From Caenorhabditis remanei (Eukaryota; Nematoda; Chromadorea; Rhabditida; Rhabditidae): DNA of 64,000 bases. The position numbers and the translations under genes were made by a program. This document shows positions 27,541 through 44,820 of the stretch, piece by piece (positions within the stretch are counted from its first letter, which is position 1; every line of letters starts with the position of its first letter). The notes under the pieces were generated by a model, which searched no databases, was not told where the DNA came from, and saw nothing but the letters and a program-made list of their open reading frames with translations. The stretch is taken from NCBI RefSeq assembly GCF_010183535.1, contig NC_071331.1:16740001-16804000 (forward strand). Direction: 5' to 3'.

Positions 27541-30500
27541 ATGTGGCCTCCGATTGTTGAAGATCAATGCAATTATAGGTTTGTTTCTTTTTAAATATAC
27601 TTTTGAACTTCAGAGAAAAAACTGATAGCGTTTAATTTAGGCAAGTGCGAAATTTAATTGCATTAAAGAAAAAATACATATTTTTCAAAATGTTTTTTTT
27701 CTGATAGTGAGATAAGAAACCAAGAATTTGACATATTTTGTGAAAATTGTCCTAAAAATCGAAGAGTGGTTCTTCAAGGTCAGCCCATGACCATTTGTGC
27801 AGTGTTACAAAAGCGCAAACGGATGCACAGCACCCCCAAACGGGATACAGCGCTGAAAAATTTCAAACGTTCGCCGGGGAGCGCGTTTGCTATTTCAGTG
27901 CATTTTCAGAGGCACTTTTTTCAAAGTGCTATAACTTTTTATAGAGCGAATTAAAATAAATTCTGAGACCTAACTATCGTAGACGATAAGCTGTTTTATC
28001 GATTTTTTATGATTTTAAATTTTTAAAAATGCTTAATCGCTGAGATCATTCGAGAGTTTTCGAAAAAACACTCAAAATTGCTTGTTTTTGGACGAATTCC
28101 CTACGTTTTCAGAACTTTTTTGAATGAAAAAAACAAAAAAGGCATGAATAACTGACATCATACCAAAAATTCGCGTAACATTAACACTAGGGGGATAAAA
28201 CGCTGAAATTGCACAATTCGAGTATTCATGTCATATTTGCGTATTATAACCGAAATTTCTTAATTTTATTGTTGATCTAGATTTCTCGAAACATATAAAC
28301 TATTTTCAAAGCAGTTCAACAACTTCCCATTGAAAAAAACCCGTTTTTTTCAAAAATGTCATTTTCCAATTTTTGCATTCACTCTCAAAAAGAAGAAATG
28401 AAGGTTCTAGGTGTGATTTTTTGAATCTATATCATCTTCTATTATACTGAATTACTCAATATGTCGAGATCCCTAGTGCTTTTGCCGTGTATCACTTATT
28501 TTTCAATCAAAAACTGCTTTGACGGGTTTTAGGGTCTTATCAATGATTTTATGTTTCCTGTAACGATTTCTTTATTTTATAATCACTCAAATAGCCCAGA
28601 AACTTTTTTTCATTCAAAAAAGTTCTGAAAACGTAGGGAATTCGTCCAAAAACAAGCAATTTTGAGTGTTTTTTCGAAAACTCTCGAATGATCTCAGCGA
28701 TTAAGCATTTTTAAAAATTTAAAATCATAAAAAATCGATAAAACAGCTTATCGTCTACGATAGTTAGGTCTCAGAATTTATTTTAATTCGCTCTATAAAA
28801 AGTTATAGCACTTTGAAAAAAGTGCCTCTGAAAATGCACTGAAATAGCAAACGCGCTCCCCGGCGAACGTTTGAAATTTTTCAGCGCTGTATCCCGTTTG
28901 GGGGTGCTGTGGGATGCTTTAAGCGACAGAAAAGTATTCTTCTAGCGGAGAGAATATCTCTCGTTCACAGCTAATTGGCTATCTCTAGTAGAGGTTTTCG
29001 TGGTTTGGATAGGTTTATTAGGGTAAGAATAAGGATGGGAAGAAGAAGTCTCGAATGATAACAAGGACGGTATTTATACTGGATCTTCGATGGGCGGAGT
29101 CAGCGGCTTCAGGGCTGGAAGGGCATCGGGCGCTTAAGGAATGTGCTTCATGGGACTGTGGGGTGAGAGAGTATTTGAGGATAGGAGTCAGTTATGGAGA
29201 GTGACGTTGATGGGGCAAGAGGCAACGGGCTGGATCGTGTGGGCAGCTGGGTGAGATAGTGTTGGAGATTGGAGACGGTTCCAGAATGTGATGTGGATGG
29301 GATATGGTGCGGTGTCTTTGACAGTGTGGGTTGATGGCGAGAGAGTGCTTGGGTCGGTGAGACGTTGACGGGAGATCTGGAAGAATCGTGTTAGGCTTAA
29401 TAATGGGAATGGGATGTGAGAGTGGGCTTGCCTGTCCTGGACAGAGACCCGGAAGTTATCCGGATGGGATGATGATGATGCGTCACCGGGTGCAAAGTCC
29501 GGTGAGATCTTGGAATACCTAAGGGATTACGATATCCCTTACACCTCCCTCCTTAGCGAGGACCGACCCTGGTCCTCTAAAGGAAAACAGGTGTCTTATC
29601 GGTTGTTGGTGGTTATTGGAAAGTCTTCGAACTTATTGTTGGATTGTTGTTATTGATTCTTTTTATTCTTTTTGGATTTGGAAGGAATATTGAAAATATT
29701 GGTACTTAGTATTGGTTTTGTGGGCTGACTTTTGATTCGTTGAGGTTTGGGCTAGTGTTATGGGTTGCTCGAAAAAATAAGGGAGAGACTGGATACTAAT
29801 AGGGACGACCTTGTCATATCCAGTCCTAGGAAACACACTGTTGTGTTTCCTTAATTTTGAAAAAATGTTAAGTAACAGAGTTCAATTTGGAGCTACGGTC
29901 CTCAAGAAAGCTGATACGTTTTGGCTTTTGGCTATTGGCTATTTGGTGGTGGTTTTTAGAGAAAAGGGAAGGACCTTGGTGAAAAAGTTTGGGAAACTCG
30001 TGGAAGGTAGGGATGCACAGCCTACACTTCGTCTGTTTCTTTTAGTTCCAATTTAGATTTGGGAATGCCATTCCCTCGATCGGGAGGTCGTCCCAAATTC
30101 TTTCGGCGACGGCCTGGCTTATTTGCCTGGCCATACAGACCTGTGATACCGCGTGGGACCAACTTGCGTTATTATAGTGCGGGTTACAACCGCAGCGGAG
30201 GTTCGGGAGTGGCGCGTGCCGTCTGGTCCAGGCGTGTGTCGATGCCGAGAAGATTCGCAAGGTGCCAGGGATGTGGGCATTCGGTCCGAAATCGCTTGCA
30301 CGAGGCTCGGCTCCACTGGGGCGGAGGTGCCCGTCCAGGACGGTGAAGTGAAGAAGGGGTGCAAGAGCGGGGTCGTCGAACTCATACGGGGTTGAGTCCA
30401 CAATGACTCTTGCGGTGTATGCTCCGTTAAGAACGCAGACCGTGGCGTTGATCTGGACCATAGGTGCCAATGGCCAACGATTGGCTCGAGGATGACGGTG

Positions 30501-33500
30501 GTTGGGGCGAGAGCCGGATGGTTGCGAATGCATGAAGGACGTGAGGTGAACAAGTTCGAGAGCTAAAATAAGAGGAGTACTGTTATTTTTCTAAGGTGTG
30601 ATGGAAGAAGCTAGCCGAGGGTTCTAATAAAGAAAACACATGGGAATAAGCGTAAGGAGGGTAAAGAAACTAAAGAGCACGTCGGGAAATGATAGGGAGG
30701 GGGGGACAAGGGTAGGAGAAAGAGCGAAGGAAAATACAAGAATGAAGATATAGGTGCTCGCCGCTTGGCTTTTATACCAATCGGGGCGGGGCTTCAACTC
30801 ATGGGAGCGAAGAAGATAGATGATGAATCAGCTGGTCGGCGAACCATCAAAAGAGCGCTAAGATGAAAGGGGAAAGCCGAAGGGAAGATGTAACTATGAC
30901 TCGTACGTTTAGTGGAGGAAGGAGAGGGAAAAAAAAAAAAATACAGTTAAAAAAAAATCGTACAGTCCTGGGTGTGGAGAAAAGTGATTCCACCGTACTG
31001 TAACTGCTCGATGGTTATTCTTCGAAACGCTTAGTTGGGATTCGAGTTCTACGTAGGTTATAACGTGGTTCGAAAGCGTGATCTGTGGTTTGGTCTTCTG
31101 GAGTTTTTGGGGTGTTGATTTCAGGGGTTTCTAAAGTTTCGAATTCGGTAGGGGGTTCCGCCTGCGTACGCGAAACTTGGCTAACTGATTCCTTAGGGGG
31201 TGGTACCTGACATTCTTGATCGATCTCGGACTCCTCCCGAGGTGTTGTTGCTGCTGGACCGGAGATTTCGATGAACTTCTTGATTTGATCCAAGTGTACT
31301 CGTTGGGGTGCTTTTGCCGGGTTGCAGATGTCCTGAATTAGTGCTTCGGGTCTTTCGACCTGAACTACTCTATACTGACCTCTCCAAGGGAGAACTAATT
31401 TCTTTGAGAGTCCCTTTTTGGATTTGTAGTTTTTGAACAGAACTCTGTCGCCTACCTCAATATCGGAAGGTCTAGCCTTTTGATCATACGCCTTTGTAAA
31501 TTGTGATCTGGATTTGTCAGCTTGCTCCTTTGCATGGGACCAAGCTTCTCGAATGTTGAGTACCAACTCTTTGCGAAAGTTGTCGATTTCATCGGTGTTA
31601 GCCTCCGTGAGGACTCCCGGAGATGGGTCGATGATGTTGTCGATGCTGAAAATCGGGTCGCGCCCGTTGATTAGAAAGAAAGGGGTTTCTCCGGTGGAGT
31701 CATGAATGGTGGTGTTATAACAAAAGGTGAGGGCTGGGAGGATAGTATCCCAGTCCGTATGATCCTTGTTAACGTATTTCGATGTCAACTGGTGGAAGGT
31801 TCTAAAGGTCCTTTCCGTTGCTCCATTACCTTTTGAATGGTATGGGATGGCTTTGTGATGTTGAATCGACAAAAGGTCGCAAAATTCACCGAAAGCGTGA
31901 GACGTAAAGGTGGTAGCATTGTCGGAAACTAGTTCGTTCATGGCTCCATACCTAAGAACGCATTCGTTTAGCAATGCCCGAGCTACCGTATCGGACCTAG
32001 CGTCCGGAAGTGGGACTGAAATTACGAATTTTGAAAACCAACAAACGACGTTCAAAATATATTTGTTGTTACGGGGAGTTGTTCTCAGGGGACCTGTAAG
32101 GTCGAGACCTACTTTTTGAAAAACTCTTGATGTTGTGACGGGTACAAGTTTTTCTTTTAGAGCAGGAACTGGTGAATTCTTTTCCTGGCACTTAACGCAA
32201 GCTTGGCTCTTTTCGAAAATTTCTTTGCCCATATCTGGCCAAAAGTATTTTCTGCCGATCTTGGCTTTTGTTTTCTTCCAGTTGAAATGTCCGCCGGACA
32301 GGTAGCTTTCGTGAAATGCTTCGAAAATCAGGTTGGTAAGGTGTTTTGGTACATATAGGACGTACTTTTTACTTGTAGAATGAGGTTTAGTTAAAACTGT
32401 GCCGTTCGCTGCAAGGGTTGAAAGTTCAAGCCTGGTAAGCTGGGGCTCCGGAAGAGACGAAATGGGTACTTTGGATTGTAAAACGTTTTTTAGAAGTGAA
32501 ATTTCCGGATCTTTTTCTTGTTCCTCGGAAATGTCTAGCGGTAGCGACTGGCTGCGCTTGGACCTTCTGGACTTAGGTAGCGCTGGAAGGGCGGGGCAAA
32601 CTTTCATACAGATGGGAAACTCGACTATATCTTTTAACTCGGAATGATTGGCTGGATTATCGTTTTCCCTAGCACGAGACAGACAGTCGGCGACGGTGTT
32701 CTTTTTGCCGTCAATGTGGATGATCGAAATATCATAACATTGTAACTCGATAAGCCAACGAGAAAGATTGTCGTGAGTTTTGGCTTTCTGAAGCAGGAAG
32801 GTCAGAGGCTTGTGGTCGGAATGGAGAATGATTTTTGACATACATACGTAGGGGCGAAATTGACGGAGGGCATAAATTATGGCGCCCATTTCAACTTGAA
32901 TGGCAGGCCAACGTGTCTCGGGATCAGACAGGGTACGGCTGGCATAGGCAATTACACAAAAATCTTTGTCTTTTTCGTCTCGAGATTGCATTAGTGCTGC
33001 ACCCTGGGCTACTGAACTAGCGTCACAGAAAATGTGAAACGGTTTGTCGTAATCTGGGAAGCCTAGAATTGGTTCGGCTATGAGTGCTGTTCTAAGTTTT
33101 TCAAAAGATTCCTGCTGATCTCGATCCCATACAAAATTTTTCTCTTTTCGAGTTAGGCGTGTCAAGGGCTCAGCAATTTCCGAGAAATTTGGGATGAATT
33201 TTCTGAAGAAACCGGCCATTCCTACGAAGCGCCTGATTTCGTTAACGTTTGTGGGTTCGGGAAATTCCAGAATTTTAGCGACATTAGCTTTATCTGGGGC
33301 GTAGTTATCCTTATTGATCTCATGACCTAGAAAAGTGATTGCTGACTTTGCAAATTCGCATTTCTTTGGGGAAGCTTTCAGATTGAAAGAACGAAAACGG
33401 TGGAGGACTTTTCTTAGCGACTCCACGTGTTTTTCGAAAGTTTTGCTAAAAACGAGGATATCGTCTATGTAGACCAAAACTTCCTCTTCGAGACCTCCTA

Positions 33501-36500
33501 ATACGGTTCTAAGTGCTCGCTGAAAATACGAGGCGGCTGATCTCAAACCAAAAGGAAGATGTGTGTACGCATACACTTTTTGATCAGTTATGAACCCGCA
33601 CTTGTATGATGAAGCTGGGTCTAAGCGGAGTTGGAGATATCCGTTGGCCATATCAAGACTACTAAAGTAGCTGGATCCTCCGACCTTTTCTAAAATTGAG
33701 TCTATTCTCGGAAGTGGGAAATTATCGGGGATGGTTGCTTCATTTAGTTTACGAAAATCGAGACAGACTCGAAGAGATCCATTTTTCTTTTTGACTATGA
33801 CTATTGGGCTAGTCCAAGGGGTATTAGATTCGGTGATGCGCCTAGATTTCAAAAGTGACTCGATGTGCTTTTCAAGTTCAGCTTGATACTTGACCGGTAC
33901 ACGGTAAGGTCTACCTTTGATAGGGACTTCCGTATTAGTGTAAATATGTACTGGGTCCGTTTTAGAGCTACCGAGATCATACTGGTTTTTCGAAAAGACG
34001 TCATGATATTCGTCGAGGAGTTCTTTCAAAATTTCTTTTTGTGAATCGGTTATTCTAGCTTGGGAAAGATTGATGGTAAACTCAGGGTCAATTTCTACTT
34101 CATCTTCGGTACTAATTGGATTTTGGTTACTGTTAGGAATAATACATTACCGAAGGTACGTCATTTTCCTCATTTAGATCAGTGGCGGTGGCTACTGTGG
34201 TGTTTGCATAGAGAGTCTTAGGCTCACTGGTAGGGTTTGTGATTAAAAGAATAGGGTTTTTGTTTGTGAAAATGGCTGGAGCTACTAAGAGATCTACTTT
34301 AGTGAGGGTATTTGTTTGGGAAAGGAGGATCAAGTCAGACGGTTTGGCGCATAACGGGGCCGCACATTTGACGAACGATTCAGAATTTGGGGGTATGATG
34401 GTGTCCCTACTTACGTGGATAGCGTACCTTGATGGGAAAATCTCGATATCCTTCCTTGCTCCGAGCGGCAGTCTTTCGTCGGCCATTTCGAAGAATCCTT
34501 GGGCATAGTCCAGATAGAACTTCGGCAAGCGTTGGAGGATGTCGTTCCCGAAGATGAAGTCGTATCCTCCACTTCCGTCTGGAGTGCACTGTCCGCTGGT
34601 GAAGTGTGTGGTGTGGAAAACGGAGAGGGAACCTATACTGAATTTTACTGTGGCGGTACCAGCCATCTCGACTTCGTTGCCACCGAGGCCTAAAGCGTGG
34701 TCAACAGAAGGTGCGTCGAGTCTAGAAATCCCAATTAACGCGCAAATTTCCTTGCTAGCTACGGTGAAACCGGCTCCGGTATCCACTAGTGCCCAACACG
34801 AAATTCCGTTTGCACGAACTGGAATTTGGGCGGTGAAATATCTCGGTCCTTCTAAACTCAAGACGTTGATTGTGGGGGTTTTTAATCTTCTAATTTCGCG
34901 GGCGCAATCGGGGATTGGGTTTGGTGTTAGGTGGCTGGTTTTTGACGGGAGTGGGGTATCGCGATCGGTGCTTCCAAATTCTATTATGGTTGGTGGAGGG
35001 GTGAAAACTGAGATGGGGGTGGGTGGGTTGGAAGACTCGGTTCTTGGTTTGAAACGTGTTCCTGGAAGCAAATTCAGCCATGGGCCAGCATAAAAGCGGG
35101 CAATTCCACAAATAGCTACTACGGCAATCAAGAAAGTTACGAGGAGATTGACGACTAGTGACCAGATATAGAATACTACTTGCCAAATATTTTTGAGACG
35201 AGTCCACCAGTCGACCAGGTTCTCCAGCCCGTTAGGCGCCAACGGGCCTGTGGCTGGATTACTGTGTGCGGAAAGAATGCGCGTAAGCGCTTCAGGTGAC
35301 CCTTGCATAGCTTCAAAAATTTCGTTGTAGTGCGGAGTTGGGATGTTTTCGGACAGGGATCCAATGATTAAGTTACGGAAAATCAGAGGGTTCTCCTCGA
35401 GGGAAGATGTCGAGAAAGGGATCTTTTCGTTGATCACTTGTGGTTGGAAGTTAGAATTGGACTTCAATTCCAAAGAGAAAGGGTTCAGCGAAAAGAGGGT
35501 TTCGTTCGCGACGTACTCGAAATTAGTGACTAGTGGACAATCTACTGGGTGGGCTCTATTTGAAATTATTCCGGTTTCCAAGTCAATAAAAGTTACAATA
35601 GAGGAGTTGGTGGGAAGCGTGATTTCGACGGATGGCTTGGAATAGCATTTTTCAGAAAAGGGGATAAATTTGAATGATTCGGGCGGGATTACTGTGCAAG
35701 GCTTAACCGAAATGTAGCCGTTGCCGATAAACTTAGCCTGAATGTGGGTTTTCCCGGTGATTTTTCTTACTGCTAAAGTGGGGTTGCTAGCGACGGCGGA
35801 AAGAATAGCGGCGGAAATTGAGTTGGTGGAGGAGCAGAAACTCATAAAATTGTTCCAGAACCAATTATCAGTTTTGGTCAACACTGCTTCTTCAAGGGCT
35901 AAAAGTTGGGAAGCGAGCTGATTTGACGTAACGAAATTTGTCATATTTTGAAGAGTGTTAGAAAGGTCGGAGTCTCTTTTTGAGCGGATGGGTGCACTGA
36001 TACCGTAACCCTGGTCTGTAACCACTATTTTTCTACCACAGTCAGCTATTCTAGTTGAGTTTTTATCGAAAGAGAGAGCAATTTCTCGAGTCTCGCTAAG
36101 CCAGACTCGACCGGACAGCAAGCCTTTTAGGGTGTCATAATAGACATACCTACAAGCTTGTTCGGATTGGGGCTTCCAGATAAAAGCGGCGCCTTCTCGG
36201 GTGTTGCACGAACCAACCGAGAAGCGACAACCTGTCATGGAGCCGGCGGCTGAGATCGGTACCTCATTACCGTATCTAGCCGAAATTCGGGTAGACATCA
36301 TGAAACAATTGGTGGTTTCCAATGTTTGCGTGCCCTTAAATACCGAAAGCGGGGCACTTGGCCAATCAATCACGTGAGGATTATTGGTCTTGTAGACTCC
36401 ATTTTGAAAGTGGAGTTCTCCGTGTTCGCAATTCTTGAATTGCAACATGCGTAGGCATTCCTCAGCAGATACCATCATTTGCTTGAAGGCGGTTTCTTTG

Positions 36501-39500
36501 AACTGGGCGCCGAAAGCGTTTACGGAAAATTGCGTGGTTTGCCTAACAATTTTGCAAAGTGTCCCGTTTGCTTCGTAAATCAAGGTGTTGTCTCGGTAAA
36601 TGGCAAATTCACGAGGTACTACAGGGGAGCTGGAGGACAAATTTCTAGAAGCTTCGCAACTGACTGGGTCCGGGAGCTTGATGTAAGTTTCCGGAGAATG
36701 AGGCATACAGACTAGTGGTGTTAAGGCGGTAGAATGAGTGAAAAGGCAAACGAGGGTGAGGATGGTTAAAAGTGGGCCGGTGGGTGGGATGTAACTCATT
36801 ATGCGGTTCCTATTGACTGGAGTTGGGTTCGTGGCGGTAGAAAGTTCAGAATTACGCTTAATCAGGGCTTCGACCTGATTCTGTGAGACTTTGAGATCGT
36901 CTCTAAGTTTCTCAATTAGACTATTCTCGACTGGAGTTACAGCCTGGATGTACCTATTACCTGCTGGGTGGTGCGGAATCTGATGATGTTCTACTGGATC
37001 GTTACGGGGAAACTGTGGACGCTGCGATCTATTGCCGTTATTACGGTAATAGTTGTTGTTATTTCGTGGAGCCACAAAACGTTGCTGATTTTGGCGTCGC
37101 CTACAATCAGCTGCAAAATGTCCTTCTCTCCCGCATTCGTAACACGCTGTGTTCCGCCGAGGGGAACGTTGTTGAGATCGCTGTTGGGGCTGTGTGAAAG
37201 ACTGCGGCGCACTTTGACTAGGGTGAGAGGGGACGACTGAGAGACCTTGAGGGACGATTGTGTTAGATTTTGCGGCCTCAGACAACAAAAGTTCAAACTT
37301 GATAGCTGAATTCAGCGCGTCCTGGAACGTTTGAGGACTTTCTCCCTTCACGTGGAATTTCAGGTTGAAGAGTAACCCGTCGATGAAAGCTTCCTTAGCT
37401 TTCTCTTGGATGTAGTCCCTAGTCTTGTCTACATACGCGCTTTGAGCTAGCCTCCTTACCCTAGTGCAAAAAGTGTCGACGGACTCGTCGGATCTCTGAC
37501 TACAGGATCGAAGCTGTTGGCGCTCCATCTCAGACCTAGTGGGGTCTTGGAAAGTGGCTTTTAGGTTATCCACTAGGTCCTTAAATGTTGCTGCGTTATT
37601 TTTCTCAATAACTTCCTCAGCCTTATCCCTAGCGTAGTCCGTAAGGTAAGTCAGAAATACGGCTCGCTTATCCTCTTCACTTAGCGGTGTTTTGGCGGCA
37701 TTAGCGTGATCTGTGAAAGATCGGACAAACGTGGCAAAATTTTCATGTGGAGCCCCCGAAAAAGGTGAGATGCTTGATGTGGCCTTATTACCCAGAACGT
37801 TAATGAATGGCAACCTAACACGTGGCGGCATTTTTGGGGCTAGAGGAGTTGCGAATTCATCAACTTCCTCGTTTAGGACCGGCGGAGCCGAAGCAGGATC
37901 TGCGCGAGGATGCGGGGTTTCAATACGGTTTTGAGTAACTAAGACTAATGGACTGGGAACCTTCAATTGCGCATACGAGCCGGTCGAGTTCCCAGACTTA
38001 CCTTCGACAGTACGAAGTCGGTTTTCCATTGCTTCAAAGCGGTCCGCTGATAGTGACGTGATTGCGTGCATCCTCTCGTGGATACAGCCAAGATCCGTGA
38101 CGACTGCGTCCCTCAGACTGAGCAGATTGGTGGTTGTCAGTTTGCTGGCGGCTCGGAGATTTCCGAGGCAGGTTTCGGATTCCAGTGTGATGTTCCCGGA
38201 TGGGCTTTGTGGTGCTGGTGGGGCGGTAGAGGTTGTTGGGGCGGTGGCTGTGACTTGTTCATGCGATTCAGGCGCCTGCGGGCCGATTATCGAAGAAGTT
38301 GCTTGGAGCGGCAAAGCTGGAGGTGGCGGTGGCTGCAGCTGCAGCGGCGGGTCCGTGGGGGACCGCGGAACGACCATTCTATAATACTGATTAATACAAC
38401 TCTCTCACACCAGTGGAGAGTACGGTAAAACAAAAAGACGACTTCGGACAATATCAATTTTTGCTATCTTAGCCAAAAATATACTTGAATTTTCCCTATG
38501 AGGAAAGCGTTATTTCTTTACATCTTGTTGCCACGAGGCAGGAATTCAAAGTGGACGCGAAAAAAACGAGATGTCCATTGTGACTTTTTGTCTCGGCATG
38601 TCGCTACGAGGCTACCAAGGCAAAATAGAAAGGGGGCAAAGAACGGTTGCCACCGGACGATCGTACATAAAGAAAATAATAAAACAAAACGGTGGGGGAA
38701 ACGGAAGACGCGGGGACGAAAAGGGGCGGGCGGGTGGGGGGATTGTGTACACACTGCAGCTTTCTGCACTCTGAGTCATATCTTAAGGTCAACCTTTGTT
38801 GCCTATCTCTCAAACTTTTCTTAATACTTTGGACTTTTTTCTCAATTCTCATCGTACGTACGGAATTCTCACTGACTCTTGACTCTTAACTCTTAAATTC
38901 TTAATTCTTAATTCTTAATTCTCACTTCTCGAAATTCACATGTGTCTCTAAGACTTTTCTTACGACTAGGCAGGGAGACTTAACAAAAACTATGAGGGGT
39001 CTAAGCGTTAAACTAATGGGCCCTAAGCTTAACACCAAAACTATCCTCCTACGGATGCATCCCGGACAACTTAATTTGTCCCTCTTAAACTCAAAAACTC
39101 AACTCACTTATCATCAGGGGCGGCAGAGGTCCAATTACCCCCCTGGCACTCAATATACCTGCATTAGTCGTTCCTTCCTATTCCTAAGCCTGGCTATCCA
39201 AAACGGGTCGATCAATTGCTCAGCGGGGCCTGGAGGGCTACGACCGCCGAGACTCGCTGCTACCAGTAGAGGTTTTCGTGGTTTGGATAGGTTTATTAGG
39301 GTAAGAATAAGGATGGGAAGAAGAAGTCTCGAATGATAACAAGGACGGTATTTATACTGGATCTTCGATGGGCGGAGTCAGCGGCTTCAGGGCTGGAAGG
39401 GCATCGGGCGCTTAAGGAATGTGCTTCATGGGACTGTGGGGTGAGAGAGTATTTGAGGATAGGAGTCAGTTATGGAGAGTGACGTTGATGGGGCAAGAGG

Positions 39501-40725
39501 CAACGGGCTGGATCGTGTGGGCAGCTGGGTGAGATAGTGTTGGAGATTGGAGACGGTTCCAGAATGTGATGTGGATGGGATATGGTGCGGTGTCTTTGAC
39601 AGTGTGGGTTGATGGCGAGAGAGTGCTTGGGTCGGTGAGACGTTGACGGGAGATCTGGAAGAATCGTGTTAGGCTTAATAATGGGAATGGGATGTGAGAG
39701 TGGGCTTGCCTGTCCTGGACAGAGACCCGGAAGTTATCCGGATGGGATGATGATGATGCGTCACCGGGTGCAAAGTCCGGTGAGATCTTGGAATACCTAA
39801 GGGATTACGATATCCCTTACACTCTTCAAATTCTATCGTTTTTCAGTTATCAAGAACATGCTGGTCTCAACCCACACGACCACTACCATCATCATCATTA
39901 CCCACATTCATCAGCTCATCATACCGAATGCTATCAAACTCTTTCGTGTCCATCGGATCTTCCCATCGAAACTTCCTACTACAACAATATGCCACCGACC
40001 TATCAAGGTAATACATTTCAGATGAAAAGTTCATTGAGACCTGAAGTCACGCAACCGTTGCAGACGCATCGCATTATGAACTGGTTCTCACGCTTGTCTC
40101 CTAAACGAGTTCAACACACAATCTTGATTTTTTGTGTTTCAGATCTCGGACAAACTGATCTCAGCCCTCAATTCTGGTGTGCTGAAGTGGATTGTGCTCA
40201 CGAGAGATGTGCCACAAGAGAAATTCCTCACGAACAATCTAAGATCTTCGAAGAGATCTCCAAGGAATGTGATCATATTCTGAACAATTCGGACGAATGT
40301 GAAAAATGCAAAGTGCAGTAAGTACTCGGGATCAGATCCCTGATTTCTTATAATATCTATTTCAGACATGAAGACGGTGCTCATGAAGCAATTCCAATCA
40401 ATGATCTCGTCGATATTGTCATGCAAACTGTCGATAATATCAAGAAGAATGACTCTTCTCAAGGTTAGAATCGTCGAATGAATTCAACTGAACCAAATGT
40501 TTCGTATTTTCAGAAGAAACCAAGATGCTCTCCCGTAAACGTGAGCAGAATAAAGTGGCTGCTGCCCGTTACCGTGACAAACAGAAGGCAAAATGGCAGG
40601 GACTTTTGGATAAAAGAGAGGCTGAAGAGAAACGAAATGTTCGTCTCAAACGACAAGTTACTCAATTGGAAAAAGAAGTTGCCGAAGCGAGACAAGCATT
40701 CCTTCTGAAACTTTCCCAAAAGTAG
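27541..40725 (+). CDS. ATF4/ATF5-type bZIP transcription factor with 12.3-kb TE-filled first intron
   Basis: Exons 27541-27578, 39847-40007, 40143-40317, 40366-40463 and 40514-40725 give 227 residues with every phase matching. Exon 1 encodes only MWPPIVEDQCNY plus two bases. It is placed here because it is the first good ATG after the leader, ends in a phase-2 donor (AG|GTTTGT), and exon 2 needs exactly that phase. The N-terminal half has a His-rich run (HYHHHHYPHSSAHH) and Cys/acidic segments. The C-terminus is a bZIP: basic region KREQNKVAAARYRDKQKAK, then a leucine-zipper heptad pattern. EQNK-AA-RYR is characteristic of ATF4/ATF5. ATF4-class factors drive amino-acid and mitochondrial stress programmes. 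Intron 1 holds a palindromic element and a full LTR retrotransposon. The bZIP part is certain; the link to exon 1 is inferred. Confidence 0.75.
27826..28911. mobile_element. Inverted-repeat transposon in bZIP intron 1
   Basis: Ends CACAGCACCCCCAAACGGG and its reverse complement bound ~310-bp inverted arms (27826-28135 and 28602-28911) around a ~466-bp central region. GGATG directly flanks both sides (27821-27825 and 28912-28916), a 5-bp target duplication. No transposase ORF is visible, so the element is non-autonomous. It is 75 bp from the LTR retrotransposon. Confidence 0.8.
28987..29543 (-). repeat. 3' LTR (in element orientation)
   Basis: 557 bp, starting TGTAAGGG and ending CTCTACT on the minus strand. 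By eye it is identical to the other LTR. A hairpin-forming AAGGGAT...ATCCCTT lies close to its TG end. Confidence 0.92.
29544..29554 (-). other. Polypurine tract
   Basis: AAGGAGGGAGG on the minus strand directly precedes the TG of the 3' LTR, the position where plus-strand DNA synthesis is primed in LTR elements. Confidence 0.75.
30042..30533 (-). CDS. Retrotransposon ORF3, unknown
   Basis: An intact 163-residue frame starts at ATG (MHSQPSGSRP) and lies between the end of pol and the 3' LTR, where many retroelements place env or accessory genes. The region is GC-rich compared with the host. The predicted protein is Pro/Arg-rich at the N-terminus, has no signal peptide or membrane helix, and contains a NLRCGCNPHYNN stretch. 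No family was recognised. Downstream placement and an unbroken frame suggest, but do not prove, that it is coding. Confidence 0.45.
   Translation of the reverse strand: MHSQPSGSRPNHRHPRANRWPLAPMVQINATVCVLNGAYTARVIVDSTPYEFDDPALAPLLHFTVLDGHLRPSGAEPRASDFGPNAHIPGTLRIFSASTHAWTRRHAPLPNLRCGCNPHYNNASWSHAVSQVCMARQISQAVAERIWDDLPIEGMAFPNLNWN
31015..34146 (-). CDS. Retrotransposon pol: reverse transcriptase, RNase H, integrase
   Basis: The frame is open from 34146 and the first internal Met in good context is at 34029, giving about 1,004-1,043 residues. Counting from 34029, RT shows LPFGLRSAASYFQ and the catalytic YIDD near residue 186. RNase H shows FCDASSVAQGAAL near 333 and DHKPL. Integrase has a His/Cys zinc region ending CVKC near 580-600 and a DDE core with LDLTGP, VSDNATTFT and NGATER. 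After that comes a GPY/F-like module without a chromodomain. The RT-RNaseH-IN order and motifs are of the Ty3/gypsy type. The frame overlaps ORF1 by 14 nt and is offset by one base, so expression probably needs a +1 frameshift or reinitiation. No stop codon interrupts it. Confidence 0.92.
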   Translation of the reverse strand, partial: CIIPNSNQNPISTEDEVEIDPEFTINLSQARITDSQKEILKELLDEYHDVFSKNQYDLGSSKTDPVHIYTNTEVPIKGRPYRVPVKYQAELEKHIESLLKSRRITESNTPWTSPIVIVKKKNGSLRVCLDFRKLNEATIPDNFPLPRIDSILEKVGGSSYFSSLDMANGYLQLRLDPASSYKCGFITDQKVYAYTHLPFGLRSAASYFQRALRTVLGGLEEEVLVYIDDILVFSKTFEKHVESLRKVLHRFRSFNLKASPKKCEFAKSAITFLGHEINKDNYAPDKANVAKILEFPEPTNVNEIRRFVGMAGFFRKFIPNFSEIAEPLTRLTRKEKNFVWDRDQQESFEKLRTALIAEPILGFPDYDKPFHIFCDASSVAQGAALMQSRDEKDKDFCVIAYASRTLSDPETRWPAIQVEMGAIIYALRQFRPYVCMSKIILHSDHKPLTFLLQKAKTHDNLSRWLIELQCYDISIIHIDGKKNTVADCLSRARENDNPANHSELKDIVEFPICMKVCPALPALPKSRRSKRSQSLPLDISEEQEKDPEISLLKNVLQSKVPISSLPEPQLTRLELSTLAANGTVLTKPHSTSKKYVLYVPKHLTNLIFEAFHESYLSGGHFNWKKTKAKIGRKYFWPDMGKEIFEKSQACVKCQEKNSPVPALKEKLVPVTTSRVFQKVGLDLTGPLRTTPRNNKYILNVVCWFSKFVISVPLPDARSDTVARALLNECVLRYGAMNELVSDNATTFTSHAFGEFCDLLSIQHHKAIPYHSKGNGATERTFRTFHQLTSKYVNKDHTDWDTILPALTFCYNTTIHDSTGETPFFLINGRDPIFSIDNIIDPSPGVLTEANTDEIDNFRKELVLNIREAWSHAKEQADKSRSQFTKAYDQKARPSDIEVGDRVLFKNYKSKKGLSKKLVLPWRGQYRVVQVERPEALIQDICNPAKAPQRVHLDQIKKFIEISGPAATTPREESEIDQECQVPPPKESVSQVSRTQAEPPTEFETLETPEINTPKTPEDQTTDHAFEPRYNLRRTRIPTKRFEE
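34133..38377 (-). CDS. Retrotransposon ORF1: gag, envelope-like glycoprotein and protease in one frame
   Basis: A single 1,414-codon frame. Residues ~1-525 form gag: Pro-rich start, retrotransposon capsid-like helices (FATFVRSFTDHANAAKTPLS) and a CCHC zinc knuckle (CYECGREGHFAADC) near 410. From ~527 an internal Met is followed by a signal-like hydrophobic stretch (PLLTILTLVCLFTHSTA), then a Cys-rich ectodomain with N-glycosylation sequons. A furin-like RSKR lies near 800 and a strong membrane helix (LVVNLLVTFLIAVVAICG) near 1075-1095. Around 1200 the motif ALVDTGAGFTVAS marks an aspartic protease. Known insect gypsy-like elements place env after pol, so this gag-env-protease order is unusual. 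The envelope-like call rests on topology; no homologue family was assigned. Fusion with gag may be split by splicing or proteolysis. Confidence 0.85.
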   Translation of the reverse strand: MVVPRSPTDPPLQLQPPPPPALPLQATSSIIGPQAPESHEQVTATAPTTSTAPPAPQSPSGNITLESETCLGNLRAASKLTTTNLLSLRDAVVTDLGCIHERMHAITSLSADRFEAMENRLRTVEGKSGNSTGSYAQLKVPSPLVLVTQNRIETPHPRADPASAPPVLNEEVDEFATPLAPKMPPRVRLPFINVLGNKATSSISPFSGAPHENFATFVRSFTDHANAAKTPLSEEDKRAVFLTYLTDYARDKAEEVIEKNNAATFKDLVDNLKATFQDPTRSEMERQQLRSCSQRSDESVDTFCTRVRRLAQSAYVDKTRDYIQEKAKEAFIDGLLFNLKFHVKGESPQTFQDALNSAIKFELLLSEAAKSNTIVPQGLSVVPSHPSQSAPQSFTQPQQRSQQRSPRRNTACYECGREGHFAADCRRRQNQQRFVAPRNNNNYYRNNGNRSQRPQFPRNDPVEHHQIPHHPAGNRYIQAVTPVENSLIEKLRDDLKVSQNQVEALIKRNSELSTATNPTPVNRNRIMSYIPPTGPLLTILTLVCLFTHSTALTPLVCMPHSPETYIKLPDPVSCEASRNLSSSSPVVPREFAIYRDNTLIYEANGTLCKIVRQTTQFSVNAFGAQFKETAFKQMMVSAEECLRMLQFKNCEHGELHFQNGVYKTNNPHVIDWPSAPLSVFKGTQTLETTNCFMMSTRISARYGNEVPISAAGSMTGCRFSVGSCNTREGAAFIWKPQSEQACRYVYYDTLKGLLSGRVWLSETREIALSFDKNSTRIADCGRKIVVTDQGYGISAPIRSKRDSDLSNTLQNMTNFVTSNQLASQLLALEEAVLTKTDNWFWNNFMSFCSSTNSISAAILSAVASNPTLAVRKITGKTHIQAKFIGNGYISVKPCTVIPPESFKFIPFSEKCYSKPSVEITLPTNSSIVTFIDLETGIISNRAHPVDCPLVTNFEYVANETLFSLNPFSLELKSNSNFQPQVINEKIPFSTSSLEENPLIFRNLIIGSLSENIPTPHYNEIFEAMQGSPEALTRILSAHSNPATGPLAPNGLENLVDWWTRLKNIWQVVFYIWSLVVNLLVTFLIAVVAICGIARFYAGPWLNLLPGTRFKPRTESSNPPTPISVFTPPPTIIEFGSTDRDTPLPSKTSHLTPNPIPDCAREIRRLKTPTINVLSLEGPRYFTAQIPVRANGISCWALVDTGAGFTVASKEICALIGISRLDAPSVDHALGLGGNEVEMAGTATVKFSIGSLSVFHTTHFTSGQCTPDGSGGYDFIFGNDILQRLPKFYLDYAQGFFEMADERLPLGARKDIEIFPSRYAIHVSRDTIIPPNSESFVKCAAPLCAKPSDLILLSQTNTLTKVDLLVAPAIFTNKNPILLITNPTSEPKTLYANTTVATATDLNEENDVPSVMYYS
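38378..39264 (-). other. Retrotransposon 5' leader
   Basis: 0.9 kb between the 5' LTR and the ORF1 start in element orientation. It presumably holds packaging signals and possibly a splice donor for an envelope-like mRNA. No coding evidence was seen. Confidence 0.5.
39253..39265 (-). other. Candidate primer-binding site
   Basis: TGGTAGCAGCGAG on the minus strand starts at the last LTR base and matches the form of a tRNA 3' end complement (TGG first). The priming tRNA was not identified. Confidence 0.5.
39265..39821 (-). repeat. 5' LTR (in element orientation)
   Basis: The same 557-bp sequence as at 28987-29543, with no difference noticed on reading. It should contain the retroelement promoter. 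Confidence 0.92.
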
Positions 40726-41155
40726 ATCTATTTCTATAATTTGCCATTCCCTTCATACTTGTATATCAGTTCAATGCTATTCGAAATTCCATCCCCGTCA
40801 ATCAGTTATTTTGAGTTATATTGCTTGTTCCTTTCCCTTAAATCGCACCGATGACTATCAGAATTATTAAGACGCACTCTCTGACTCGTTCGATCACCCA
40901 TGTTCACCCGAAAAAAGTCGACCATCTCCGATTTGCCAATCCTTCTGATCAGAGATAGTACCAAGTGTTCTTAGCAAATTGGGGTACTTTTTGGCCAGGT
41001 CCGTCACCTGGGTACCTAGAAAAATCAAAAAATCGATATTTTTCGAAAATTTTTCCTAAGGTAGTTAGGTATGAAATCTCAACGGGAAATTAATGTAGAC
41101 ACTATTTTAAGCATTTTTTGTGTTCAGAACAAAATTCCAGCTCAACACCTTCATA

Positions 41156-42510
41156 GTGAAAATTTTGAAAATTTATGAAATTTTCGGGTTTTTTCATGAA
41201 ATCGTTTTTATCTCGGCAGGGACACGAGAAGACGGGTTTTTTTATTTTAAATTCGGAATCTACATAAAATTTTGTATTGGAAACATGCTGTCCCTACTCG
41301 TAACTCTAGACCCAAAGAAAGATTTTTTGGGAAGAATGAGAAAAACTGCGATTTCAATTTTCAAGTCCTTCCAGTAAATTATTTTTGATGTTTTAAAATA
41401 ATGTTTTTTTGAAGTTTTTCATTCAATCATGCCATTTTTATTCAGTTCCGGTACAATTTTCGATCAAACTAACAAAAAAAATTTCGAAAAAATTGAATTT
41501 TTTGATTTCTGAAAATTTTCTCCCGAATTGAATCATTCCGACTTAAATGTTAAGGATAGCATTATAAAATCAAGAGAATATAACTGGAATATTCTTAAGA
41601 TTTATAAAAAACTTGATTCCCACTGTCGGGTCACCTGCTACCTACGCGTTCATGATGAAATTCAGCGAAATTTTCAACTTGGGAAGTTGGTGCAACGGTA
41701 CTTCATACTTGCAACGTTATTTGACAGGGAATTGCGATGAATATGACAGGAATAGTAAAAAAACTGCAAAAATTGATAGATTCAGCAAGATTTACGAAAA
41801 AAACTTGAAACAAATATTCAATGGTCTGACCTTTTTATGGATATCAGGAAAAACTTTTCAAGTTTTTTTCGTAAATCTTGCTGAATCTATCAATTTTTGC
41901 AGTTTTCTCACTATTTCTGTCATATTCATCGCAATTCCCTGTCAAATAACGTTGCAAGTATGAAGTACCGTTGCACCAACTTCCCAAGTTGACAATTTCG
42001 CTGAATTTCACCATGAACACGTAAGTAGCAGGTGACCCGACAGTGGGAATCAAGTTTTCTAAGAACCTAAAAAATATTCCAGTTATATTCTCTTGATTTT
42101 ATAATGCTATCCTTAACATTTAAGTCGGAATGATTCAATTCGGGAGAAAATTTTCAGAAATCAAAAAATTCAATTTTTTCGAAAAATTTTTTGTGGTATG
42201 ATCGAAAATTGTACCGGAACTGAATAAAAATAGCATGATTGAATGAAAAACTTCAAAAAACCATTATTTTAAAACATCAAAAATAATTTACTGGAAGGAC
42301 TTGAAAATTGAAATCGCAGTTTTTCTCATTCTTCCCAAAAAATCTTTCTTTGGGTCTAGAGTTACGAGTAGGGACAGCATGTTTCCAATACAAAATTTTA
42401 TGTAGATTCCGAATTTAAAATAAAAAAGCCCGTCTTCTCGTGTCCCTGCCGAGATAAAAACGATTTCATGAAAAAAACCCGAAAATTTCATAAATTTTCA
42501 AAATTTTCAC
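41156..42510. mobile_element. TA-flanked near-perfect palindrome nested in the larger element
   Basis: 1,355 bp starting GTGAAAATTTTG and ending CAAAATTTTCAC, with TA on both sides (41154-41155 and 42511-42512), as for Tc1/mariner-type targets. Arms of about 650 bp meet at a ~45-bp loop near 41830. It interrupts the left terminal repeat of the host element, since the sequence on either side rejoins the right-repeat sequence. No protein is encoded. Mismatches between arms are scattered. Confidence 0.75.
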
Positions 42511-43252
42511 TATGCACGGCGAGCGACGCCTCGAATCGCGAGGGAGCGAGATTGCAAAACTCTCTCACCAGAGAGGGCGCAGAGAAAAAAACGAAAACTG
42601 AATTTAGTACTGAAAATGAAGATTTTTGCTTTTTTTCATGGTTTTTTTTTCTTAATGCGAATTTAAAGTATGCAATAAATATTCTAGACGTGAAGACGAG
42701 TCAATGGAATATGAATACATCAGTTTTAATCAATTATAGAAAAAGTTATCGGCCTGGAAAAAATTAACACTGAAAAATGAAAATTTAGCAACTTTTTTAA
42801 AAATATTTCGAGAAAGGGAAGAGAACAGAAAGCGATAGTTGCAAGCTGAAGAGACAAGAATTCAACGAATATTTTGAGACCAGAACAGAGCGAAACAATG
42901 CAGTTTAAAAAGAGTTAATACAATTTGAATTTGGCAAATACAGTATCCGCAGATGACGTTTTGCATTAAAACGTGGGTTTCAGGCTAGAATTCTTGAATA
43001 TTGGGGGGTTTTTGATGTGAAGTATTGTAATTTGATATTTTTATGTTGGTTTTATTCACATTTTTCACTGTTTTGGTTATCCTTCTTCTTCTGAATCTGG
43101 TTTTGGTGATCAATTTTTGAATTTTCAGAAGAACAAGGGTAATCAATACGCGTGAGCCATCTTTGATTGTTATTTTTGAAAAACACGGTGAGTAGTTGAC
43201 CAGATTAAGGTGTATGTTCGAAGTTAGAAAAGAAATATAGAAATTTTAAGAG

Positions 43253-43681
43253 ATGGCCCCACGAACTAAACGCCAAAAGGCAACCATTAACTCTCATGCT
43301 CAACGAAAAAGTGCAGAAAAATTCCAAAAACGGAAAGATGACAACACTTTCGAAAGAAGAATCCTGGAATTAGAGACGCAGTTAGCTCTTCAAATCGAAC
43401 AATGTGATCGCATCAGAATGGAAAATGAAGATCTGGAAAATGATAACGAGCAATTGTTGATGAAATATGCTGATCTCGTAAAAAATGCGGAAATCACGAA
43501 GATGTTGTGGGGGGGGATCACGGAACAGAGCATTGAGCATCTTCATGGAATCTTCAACAAGATGGAGAGAAGGTTTATTGCTGTTCGAGATCCAATTCTC
43601 CGTGCTAATTTAATTATTAGACAAATGACTTATCTTAACTTGATTCACGATATCGGAGACTCCTGGAGAGCAGCTGACTAA
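43253..43681 (+). CDS. bZIP-like coiled-coil protein inside a transposable element
   Basis: An intronless frame of 142 residues from ATG (MAPRTKRQKATINSHAQRK). A basic region (KRQK...NSHAQRKSAEKFQKRK) resembles the bZIP N-x2-A-x3-S pattern, but the usual second Ala is Gln and the terminal Arg is Ala. A coiled coil of about 45 residues follows with heptad hydrophobics (RILELETQLALQIEQCDRIR). The C-terminal ~60 residues are helical and unidentified. An acceptor-like TTTTCAG lies about 125 bp upstream. The gene sits in the unique interior of the TTAA-bounded element. It could be a captured host gene, an element-encoded DNA-binding protein, or a host gene flanked by two element ends. Confidence 0.6.
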   Translation: MAPRTKRQKATINSHAQRKSAEKFQKRKDDNTFERRILELETQLALQIEQCDRIRMENEDLENDNEQLLMKYADLVKNAEITKMLWGGITEQSIEHLHGIFNKMERRFIAVRDPILRANLIIRQMTYLNLIHDIGDSWRAAD

Positions 43682-44248
43682 AACTCAGCTTTATTTTTTG
43701 TTTTTCACTCTAAAAATATAAATTGTTTTTTTTATAATATCAATTCAACCTATTTTGCAAAAATTTTACATAATTTTCCATTCACCTTCTGCTAATTTCA
43801 GATAAGAGGGCACTTTTCATTTTTCAAATTTAATTTACATAACCTTCAAAATTTGAATTTCGCGCCAATATCGAGAATTGCGCAAGCTATCTAGAATTGC
43901 GTCTTAAGCGGACAGAACTGTGCACTTTCGTCGCGTCGCTCGCCGTGCTATGAAGGTGTTGAGCTGGAATTTTGTTCTAAACACAAAAAATGCTTAAAAT
44001 AGTGTCTACATTAATTTCCCGTTGAGATTTCATAGCTAACTACTTCAGGAAAAATTTTCGAAAAATATCGATTTTTTGATTTTTCTAGGTACCCAGGTGA
44101 CGGACCTGGCCAAAAAGTACCCCAATTTGCTAAGAACACTTGGTACTATCTCTGATCAGAAGGATTGGCAAATCGGAGATGGTCGACTTTTTTCGGGTGA
44201 ACATGGTCTGTTGATCGATGCTCGAACGAGTCAGAGAGTGCGTCTTAA

Positions 44249-44820
44249 GTATTTAAAGTATTTTCTCAGTTTCAGTTTACAATAAAATTTAATCTGCTTA
44301 AAAAGTGATTTCTACAAAGAGCTGACAGAAAAAGGGTTGGGTTATAACAGATTTCATAATTGTAGATTGTTACAAAAATTGGAATCAGAACTGTTTTCAG
44401 AGCTAAAACTTTCAAAAAAATGTTGACTGGTTTCTGAAAATTTCAGTTCTGCCATTTTCGAATGGCTTCGGCTTCCGAAACAGGGCCCGTCTTCCATTTT
44501 ATACTGTTCCTTTCCGGATACGAACACCGAAAAAGGAAAAATAGAGAAGAGAAATGAGTCAAATGTAGCCTTTCCGTAGTTTGTAATGTTCACCGAATCA
44601 CTGCTCAGACTCCTCCTATTGCTTGCACTCTACCTCCTCCTCCCCCGGATTACATATTCTTGAAACTGGGACAATCTTCTTGTTTCAAGCTCCGCCCATA
44701 TCTGTTGATTACAGTGTTTGCATATAACCTAGAACTAGAACTCATTAGAGCTAAGAGGGACTATAAAACCTCTCCGAAGCTCCAGAATTGCATCCACCAG
44801 TCTCACTTCCAGTCTTCACA
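44249..44820 (+). promoter_or_regulatory. Upstream region of the distal Cys-rich paralogue
   Basis: CTCCGCCC at 44690-44697 and TGATTA at 44706-44711 form a block nearly identical to the one at 23.9 kb, followed by the same GGGACTATAAAA TATA region near 44758. The promoter was therefore duplicated together with the gene. The remaining sequence shows nothing. Confidence 0.55.

What the first reader, a model, noticed from the sequence alone, without database searches (positions are those of the whole stretch)
34133..38377. Envelope-like glycoprotein embedded between gag and protease in a single retrotransposon frame
ORF1 reads without a stop from a gag with CCHC knuckle, through a segment with signal-like start, glycosylation sequons, furin-like RSKR and a C-terminal membrane helix, into a DTG protease. 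Env-bearing gypsy-type elements known to me carry env 3' of pol. An env-like module inside ORF1 would need internal translation, splicing or cleavage from a polyprotein, and its capsid part could not be made in the usual way. It may be a new retroelement lineage.
Basis: partly seen in the sequence, partly recalled or inferred. Interest (0 to 1): 0.88.

Follow-up and report, generated by a model that had tools for sequence, protein, structure and literature searches.

The report
Worm retrovirus-like element with mid-placed envelope
A young retrovirus-like element in a Caenorhabditis worm carries a herpes-gB-like membrane-fusion protein between its capsid and protease genes in one reading frame, and relatives in other nematodes share this unusual order.

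Summary
On the minus strand lies a complete Ty3/gypsy-type element (28987-39821) with identical 557-bp LTRs and a 4-bp target duplication. ORF1 (1414 codons) reads Gag, signal peptide, ectodomain, furin-like RSKR, membrane helix, DTG protease; RT-RNase H-integrase follow in the +1 frame. The middle segment is a class III fusion glycoprotein: 7 of 7 Caenorhabditis relatives hit Pfam Monjiviricetes_fusion (E <= 0.05, best 2.7e-9), and herpesvirus gB fills 50 of 50 and 49 of 50 listed rows of two fold comparisons (low-confidence models). It is no chimera: an independent 99% copy and three second-family copies keep one gag-env-protease frame, and 9 of 20 further elements examined here carry env before protease in a frame running into RT. 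Env dN/dS is 0.05-0.09 in the two families. Relatives in Meloidogyne, Globodera, Ancylostoma and Acrobeloides share the order. Protease, and in one lineage all of Pol, is most simply made by reading through Env, as a signal-peptide polyprotein. No searched paper describes this order. New variant of env-bearing LTR retroelements.

The parts
39265..39821 (-). 5' LTR, 557 bp, TG...CT ends
   Evidence: 0 differences from the 3' LTR
39822..39825 (-). Target-site duplication, 5' copy (AGAG on the minus strand)
   Evidence: Flanks printed; an independent second insertion has ATTT on both sides
34133..38377 (-). ORF1: Gag-Env-protease, 1414 codons, no stop
37373..37660 (-). Gag capsid domain (Retrotrans_gag, residues 240-335)
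   Evidence: Pfam E 8.4e-9
37100..37147 (-). CCHC zinc knuckle (residues 411-426)
   Evidence: Pfam E 9.8e-5, above its cut-off
36719..36808 (-). Junction and internal signal peptide (residues 524-553)
   Evidence: Best 11-residue window has mean hydropathy 2.1-3.2 in all 28 rows with a readable env N-terminus; the window copy has a Met at its start
35060..36808 (-). Env module, class III fusion glycoprotein (residues 524-1106)
   Evidence: PF24664 in 7 of 7 segments; herpesvirus gB fold; BFVD matches
35975..35986 (-). Furin-like site RSKR (residues 798-801)
   Evidence: R-x-K-R invariant in 7 of 7; cleavage itself inferred
35081..35188 (-). Env membrane helix (residues 1064-1099)
   Evidence: Kyte-Doolittle scan
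34610..34825 (-). Aspartyl protease, DTG (residues 1185-1256)
   Evidence: Asp_protease_2 E 5.8e-5, 24.1 bits against a cut-off of 24.3
34133..34146 (-). Overlap of ORF1 and the +1 pol frame; TAT TAT TCC TAA C, a candidate +1 shift site
   Evidence: second family has CAG TAC GCC TGA C at the same place
31015..34146 (-). Pol ORF: RT, RNase H, integrase (stop to stop 1043 codons)
   Evidence: RVT_1 1.1e-28, RT_RNaseH 1.6e-29, H2C2 5.6e-15, rve 2.3e-12
30042..30590 (-). 3' accessory ORF (163 aa from ATG, 182 stop to stop)
   Evidence: 35% over 144 aa to the tail of C. nigoni P0020 (6e-25) and 38% over 128 aa to C. brenneri P0019; 24 matches in the genome, itself included
29544..29554 (-). Polypurine tract AAGGAGGGAGG
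   Evidence: read directly, next to the 3' LTR
28987..29543 (-). 3' LTR, 557 bp
28983..28986 (-). Target-site duplication, 3' copy (AGAG)

Best explanation
This is a recently inserted, env-bearing Ty3/gypsy-type retroelement of a nematode lineage in which a class III (gB/mononegavirus-G type) fusion glycoprotein lies in frame between Gag and protease. Shown: the order, the open frame, the fold class, the conservation and the purifying selection. Inferred mechanism: ribosomes starting at the Gag AUG read through Env to reach protease (and, in the second lineage, all of Pol in the same frame). The internal signal peptide targets the chain to the ER, Gag stays in the cytosol, the ectodomain enters the lumen where signal peptidase and furin cut, and the single membrane helix returns the chain to the cytosol, where the viral protease frees the pieces, much as in flavivirus polyproteins. 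In this family Pol then needs a +1 shift at the ORF1 stop. A spliced message could supply extra Env beside this.
For: Intact ORF1 with gag, env and protease domains. Class III identity: 7 of 7 rows PF24664, best 2.7e-9, and 2 of 7 gB, best 2.1e-5; 50 of 50 and 49 of 50 listed PDB entries are herpesvirus gB; 200 BFVD matches at E <= 0.001, best a nyavirus glycoprotein 9.3e-23. Young and intact: LTRs 557/557. A second independent insertion and three family-2 copies, each one open frame over gag-env-PR. Nine of 20 examined 5' pieces of other elements in this genome hold env before PR in the frame adjoining RT; the tool reports open frames of 2429-2665 aa for these nine. In database proteins env is 5' of protease/RT in 40, 3' in 2 and undetermined in 5 of 47 (one of the 5 is the window ORF, where protease follows). 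dN/dS env 0.087 and 0.053; gag-env junction (441-523) 5 syn/1 non and 8 syn/1 non. No acceptor-like site near the start of protease (residues 1085-1190) is shared between families, so protease is not evidently made by splicing env out. Of 28 rows, 13 have no Met within 30 residues upstream of, or inside, the signal core, so Env cannot start there on its own.
Against: No transcript, ribosome or protein data were available. Three acceptor-like sites before env (residues 426, 479, 521) are shared between families 1 and 2, more than in synonymous-codon shuffles (mean 0.28; 0 of 500 reach 3 at score > 4; at score > 6 none is shared), although the shuffles ignore shared descent; strong donor-like sites lie in both leaders. 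A Met follows the 521 site in both families. Of 28 rows 9 have a Met within 30 residues upstream and 6 more inside the core; all nine group-B elements of this genome have one inside the core. The AlphaFold models are of low mean confidence (pLDDT 51.8 and 60.8); whole-length fits have large rmsd (many 19-47 A, about 8 A in many rows), and TM-scores are only 0.14-0.35. The window copy scores below the PF24664 cut-off, and of six relatives with a listed match three pass it. Group-B protease matches are weak (E 1e-9 to 9e-3). One group-B copy pair has env dN/dS 0.42. Exactly two hydrophobic clusters are seen in only 9 of 21 rows.
Confidence: 0.6

Rival explanations
1. Env itself is expressed mainly from a spliced subgenomic RNA (leader or Gag N-terminus joined to a point just before the signal peptide, with its own AUG or in frame), as in retroviruses and Cer1's CERV; reading through Env serves only protease and Pol.
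For: Acceptor-like sites at residues 426, 479 and 521 are shared by families 1 and 2 beyond synonymous-codon shuffles, and donor-like sites (9.5 and 10.6) lie in both leaders. In family 2 an ATG follows the 521 site at once, and in family 1 a few codons later. Met inside the signal core in 9 of 9 group-B elements. Window: donor AAG|GTAAGTC after residue 126 and acceptor TTTGCAG at 423. Cer1 makes CERV from a five-exon spliced mRNA (PMC10309623, sections 4 and 9).
Against: The 126 donor and 423 acceptor are absent from family 2; the shared acceptor-like sites are weak (4.2-5.6 in family 1) and shared descent was not controlled. 13 of 28 rows have no Met upstream or in the core. The gag-env junction is constrained as protein in the gag frame.
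Confidence: 0.35
2. Env is removed as an intron to make Gag-protease, and the unspliced RNA makes Gag-Env.
For: Donor-like sites at residues 473-475 and acceptor-like sites at 1106-1187 exist in family 1, and donors at 435 and 521 with acceptors at 1160 and 1179 in family 2. Env-less relatives with a direct gag-protease join (189-252 nt between the gag and PR matches in 7 copies) suggest that Gag-protease without env is viable.
Against: No acceptor-like site in 1085-1190 is shared between families at score > 4, and the donors differ.
Confidence: 0.1
3. The copy is a chimera in which a stray viral glycoprotein gene inserted into gag-pol.
For: Glycoprotein captures by retroelements are known (Anakin, Errantivirus; PMC7642597 and PMC12440569 passages).
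Against: Same order in independent insertions, two lineages and several nematode genera, shared env and RT clades, purifying selection.
Confidence: 0.02
4. Env and pol were brought together independently in the two deep groups (A and B) at the same site.
For: Two metagenomic relatives, P0088 and P0107, carry env 3' of integrase and fall with group B in the RT tree but not in the env tree, so env position can change.
Against: Group-B env forms a clade (98/95, with long-branched rows) and remains homologous to group-A env; a single early acquisition is simpler.
Confidence: 0.3

Closest known systems
Atlas virus, Ancylostoma ceylanicum (Belpaoviridae; PMC9094657, passages read)
   Same: Nematode retroelement with identical LTRs and an in-frame env within one uninterrupted polyprotein; captured viral fusogen
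   Different: Order Gag-Pol-Env; BEL/Pao; env is class II, phlebovirus-like
Tas, Ascaris lumbricoides (as cited in PMC9094657, passage)
   Same: Env with weak similarity to herpesvirus gB, class III
   Different: BEL/Pao with env downstream of the polyprotein (PMC7642597 passage); no sequence comparison made here
Anakin, mosquitoes (PMC7642597, passages read)
   Same: Chuvirus-type glycoprotein captured by an LTR element
   Different: BEL/Pao; insects; the passages I saw do not give Anakin's order in words
Jingchuvirales glycoprotein insertions in animal genomes (PMC10084718, passages read)
   Same: Related class of glycoprotein genes reported in Nematoda as well as arthropods
   Different: The Nematoda cases are described there as flanked by simple repeats, and retroelement association is given for insect groups; no gag-env-protease order is described in the passages seen
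Cer1, C. elegans (PMC10309623 sections and passages; PMC3315495 passages)
   Same: Ty3/gypsy element of Caenorhabditis with a CCHC Gag and an extra 3' ORF
   Different: No env reported; no stop between gag and pol; the 3' ORF is part of CERV, a nuclear RNA-export factor
Errantivirus/gypsy, Drosophila (recalled; one sentence in PMC12440569)
   Same: Env-bearing Metaviridae
   Different: Baculovirus-type env, 3' of pol (position recalled)

Membership tests
Ty3/gypsy (Metaviridae) LTR elements | RT - RNase H - integrase order with CCHC Gag and aspartyl protease | tested here: met
   (protease match 24.1 bits, just under its cut-off of 24.3)
Ty3/gypsy (Metaviridae) LTR elements | RT placed inside the family on a tree with named reference elements | not tested
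   Trees hold relatives found by search, no curated reference set
Ty3/gypsy (Metaviridae) LTR elements | Paired LTRs and short target duplication | tested here: met
   557 bp identical LTRs and AGAG; second copy ATTT
Errantivirus | env 3' of pol | tested here: not met
   env lies between gag and PR; the only ORF noted 3' of pol is a 163-182 aa accessory ORF
Class III viral fusion glycoproteins | Sequence profile of the class | tested here: met
   7 of 7 segments match PF24664 at E <= 0.05, best 2.7e-9; 2 of 7 gB, 2 of 7 rhabdovirus fusion domain. P0001, P0002 and P0015 pass the cut-off; P0003, P0004, P0013 and the window copy do not
Class III viral fusion glycoproteins | gB/G fold | tested here: met
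Class III viral fusion glycoproteins | Membrane fusion activity | not testable with these tools
   needs an assay
Cer1 family | gag and pol without a stop between them, three CCHC fingers, CERV 3' ORF | tested here: not met
   One CCHC match, env present, pol in the +1 frame; features of Cer1 from PMC10309623. Similarity of the 3' ORF to CERV was not compared

The most novel reading that the evidence does not exclude
Nematodes harbour a deep, still active lineage of reverse-transcribing viruses whose fusogen is a segment of the Gag-Env-protease(-Pol) polyprotein, inserted into the ER by an internal signal peptide as in flaviviruses. It would be a retroviral strategy that needs no spliced env message and ties Env synthesis to Gag.
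Probability: 0.45. Interest if true: 0.92.

Novelty: new variant of a known kind. Interest (0 to 1): 0.81.

Why it matters
The env-bearing LTR elements I know of or read about here carry env 3' of pol (partly from recall). A widespread lineage with env between capsid and protease would show that a retrovirus-like gene order can be built differently, and it raises a testable question: how Gag, a membrane glycoprotein and the protease are made from one frame. It also adds a capture of a class III fusogen by nematode retroelements and suggests env loss (env-less Caenorhabditis clade P0023-P0028) in turning a virus-like element into a plain retrotransposon. Caenorhabditis is experimentally tractable, so expression and topology can be tested.

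Tried and rejected
Sequence search of the PDB with the single env segment gave nothing; with the profile 6 rows, E 0.38 and above, 5 of them gB. Scans of viral contigs with the env profile, P0045 and pol found no relatives. Chimeric insertion rejected (see rivals). The donor at residue 126 with acceptor 423 looked promising but is absent from family 2. I first counted only Met upstream of the signal core (9 of 28; 0 of 9 in group B); one search adds Met inside the core (6 more of 28; 9 of 9 in group B). A genome-wide count of all env loci in this genome could not be made, so env copies 3' of pol in this genome are not excluded. Literature: ten searches listed no paper that I recognised as describing this order; I opened seven papers, mostly passages. 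The library lacks most subscription papers, so an unseen description is possible.
Full report
WHAT IS THERE. The window (G000:C4:16740001-16804000) holds a complete LTR element on the minus strand. Its two LTRs are 557 bp and identical (0 differences), flanked by a 4-bp duplication AGAG. ORF1 runs 38377-34133 and a second ORF 34146-31015 in the +1 frame. Pfam finds in ORF1 Retrotrans_gag (240-335), a CCHC knuckle (411-426), PF24664 Monjiviricetes_fusion (713-980, E 0.002, under its cut-off) and Asp_protease_2 (1185-1256, 24.1 bits, cut-off 24.3); in ORF2 RT, RNase H, the H2C2 zinc domain and the integrase core. C. remanei CRE_10000 (P0006) has an RT identical over 443 columns, so the host is C. 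remanei or a close sibling; the genome tool names no taxon.

IT IS NOT A ONE-OFF. In the same genome a second copy on C4 is 99% identical with an open ORF1 of the same length. It has its own duplication ATTT, its LTRs are 98% identical to those of the first copy, and the first 203 nt of its own two LTRs are identical, so it is an independent insertion. Three copies of a second family (49% identity) each have one open frame of 1396-1398 aa over gag, env and protease; a further copy (C6:1.63 Mb) is split over two frames. I then took about 4.5 kb 5' of RT for 20 of the 36 more distant pol loci among the 46 scored, choosing loci whose reported open frame was 1987 aa or more. Nine of 20 (L041-L046, L048-L050) hold an env match before protease in the same frame that adjoins RT; gag was matched in 5 of these 9 and the protease matches are weak (E 1e-9 to 9e-3). 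The other 11 have frames of 720-1007 aa and no env match. One search reports open frames of 2429-2665 aa for the nine.

IT IS WIDESPREAD IN NEMATODES. A search with the RT-integrase part of the C. tropicalis relative gave 404 proteins, 120 listed. Among the 133 database proteins held plus the window ORF, 47 have an env match; env is 5' of protease/RT in 40, 3' in 2 (P0088, P0107, metagenomic) and undetermined in 5, one of which is the window ORF given alone. Named hosts include Caenorhabditis, Meloidogyne, Globodera, Ancylostoma, Oesophagostomum and Acrobeloides. Eight metagenome-derived proteins carry gag, env, PR, RT and integrase in one protein (P0034, P0042, P0043, P0045, P0049, P0067, P0069, P0070); that their gene callers do not splice is my inference. 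Env and RT trees of the same 28 elements share the main clades: six Caenorhabditis plus Ancylostoma P0046, nine Meloidogyne/Globodera-type elements, and the pair P0070/P0075. They disagree inside the nine and on P0088 and P0107, and several env rows are flagged as long branches. An env-less Caenorhabditis clade (P0023-P0028, P0024 ambiguous) sits inside the env-bearing clade of a quick RT tree, which suggests loss. In the window's genome seven env-less copies have 189-252 nt between the gag and PR matches, against 739 residues in the window.

SELECTION. Between the two C4 copies env shows 17 synonymous and 5 nonsynonymous changes (dN/dS 0.087); between family-2 copies L003 and L005, 51 and 10 (0.053). 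The stretch from the knuckle to env (441-523) shows 5:1 and 8:1, so the gag-env junction is constrained as protein in this frame; the env-protease linker shows 0:1 and 0:2, no constraint seen. Among four group-B copies env dN/dS is 0.09-0.22 in five pairs and 0.42 in one.

HOW IT MAY WORK. With env between gag and protease in one frame, protease (and in group B all of Pol) can be reached only by reading through env or by splicing it out. No acceptor-like site near the start of protease is shared between families, so reading through is the simpler account. An internal signal peptide and a membrane helix would put Gag and protease on the cytosolic side and the ectodomain in the lumen. Of 21 rows scanned, 9 show exactly these two hydrophobic clusters, 7 show them plus stretches inside or after the protease match, P0021 and P0045 have extra weak segments, and P0034, P0043 and P0074 do not fit (my reading of the list). 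Can Env also start by itself? Of 28 rows with a readable env start, 9 have a Met within 30 residues upstream of the signal core (the window among them), 6 more only inside the core, and 13 neither; the nine group-B elements of this genome have none upstream but all have one inside the core. Three acceptor-like sites before env (426, 479, 521) are shared by families 1 and 2 (0 of 500 synonymous-codon shuffles reach three at score > 4; at score > 6 none is shared), with donor-like sites in both leaders and a Met after the 521 site in both families. The shuffles do not allow for shared descent. So a spliced env message beside the polyprotein is a serious possibility, at least in these families; the strong 126/423 pair of the window is not shared. 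In family 1 and 2 pol needs a +1 shift; both have NCC-stop-C at the ORF1 end, which recalls the antizyme site (recalled, not tested).

KNOWN WORK. Atlas virus of hookworm has a Gag-Pol-Env polyprotein with a class II env, and Tas of Ascaris is said there to have a gB-like env (PMC9094657, passages). Anakin couples a chuvirus glycoprotein to Pao elements (PMC7642597, passages). Jingchuvirales-type glycoprotein insertions are reported in Nematoda among others, there flanked by simple repeats (PMC10084718, passages). Cer1 uses a spliced CERV message and no env is reported (PMC10309623, sections 4 and 9 and passages; PMC3315495, passages). Troyka elements carry no env (PMC12440569, passages). A meeting report notes a fusogen in nematode Mavericks (PMC10680173, passage). 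In the listings of ten searches I saw no paper on a gag-env-protease order. I therefore rate this a new variant of env-bearing LTR retroelements, with the expression mechanism open.

Noticed in passing
30042-30590, and G000 C3:2.347M, C1:2.705M, C3:1.894M, C4:6.474M, C1:15.586M: The 3' accessory ORF has 24 matches in the genome (itself included), among them four tandem triplets and one pair with copies about 700 bp apart; none of these lies within 100 kb of a pol match listed, a list of 46 scored of 273 candidates.
   Followed up: partly
P0019, P0057, P0121 (also P0008, P0017): Relatives carry an SF1 (AAA_11/AAA_12) helicase 3' of integrase; in P0008 and P0017 gene models join it to gag-env-protease or env-protease. 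I saw no such ORF in the window element.
   Followed up: partly
P0086: A metagenomic element has an SF1 helicase between gag and protease, the slot that env holds here.
   Followed up: no
P0088, P0107: Metagenomic relatives with env 3' of integrase, so env position is not fixed across the wider group.
   Followed up: partly
P0069, P0120: Precomputed Pfam lists dUTPase in P0069 and P0120, and a macro domain in P0120.
   Followed up: no
40862-44253: Nested long inverted repeats (259 nt arms 98% complementary at 40898-41156 and 43948-44206; inner palindrome 41472-42194), perhaps a DNA transposon or fold-back element.
   Followed up: no
28987-29543: LTRs end in TG...CT rather than TG...CA, in both independent insertions.
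   Followed up: partly
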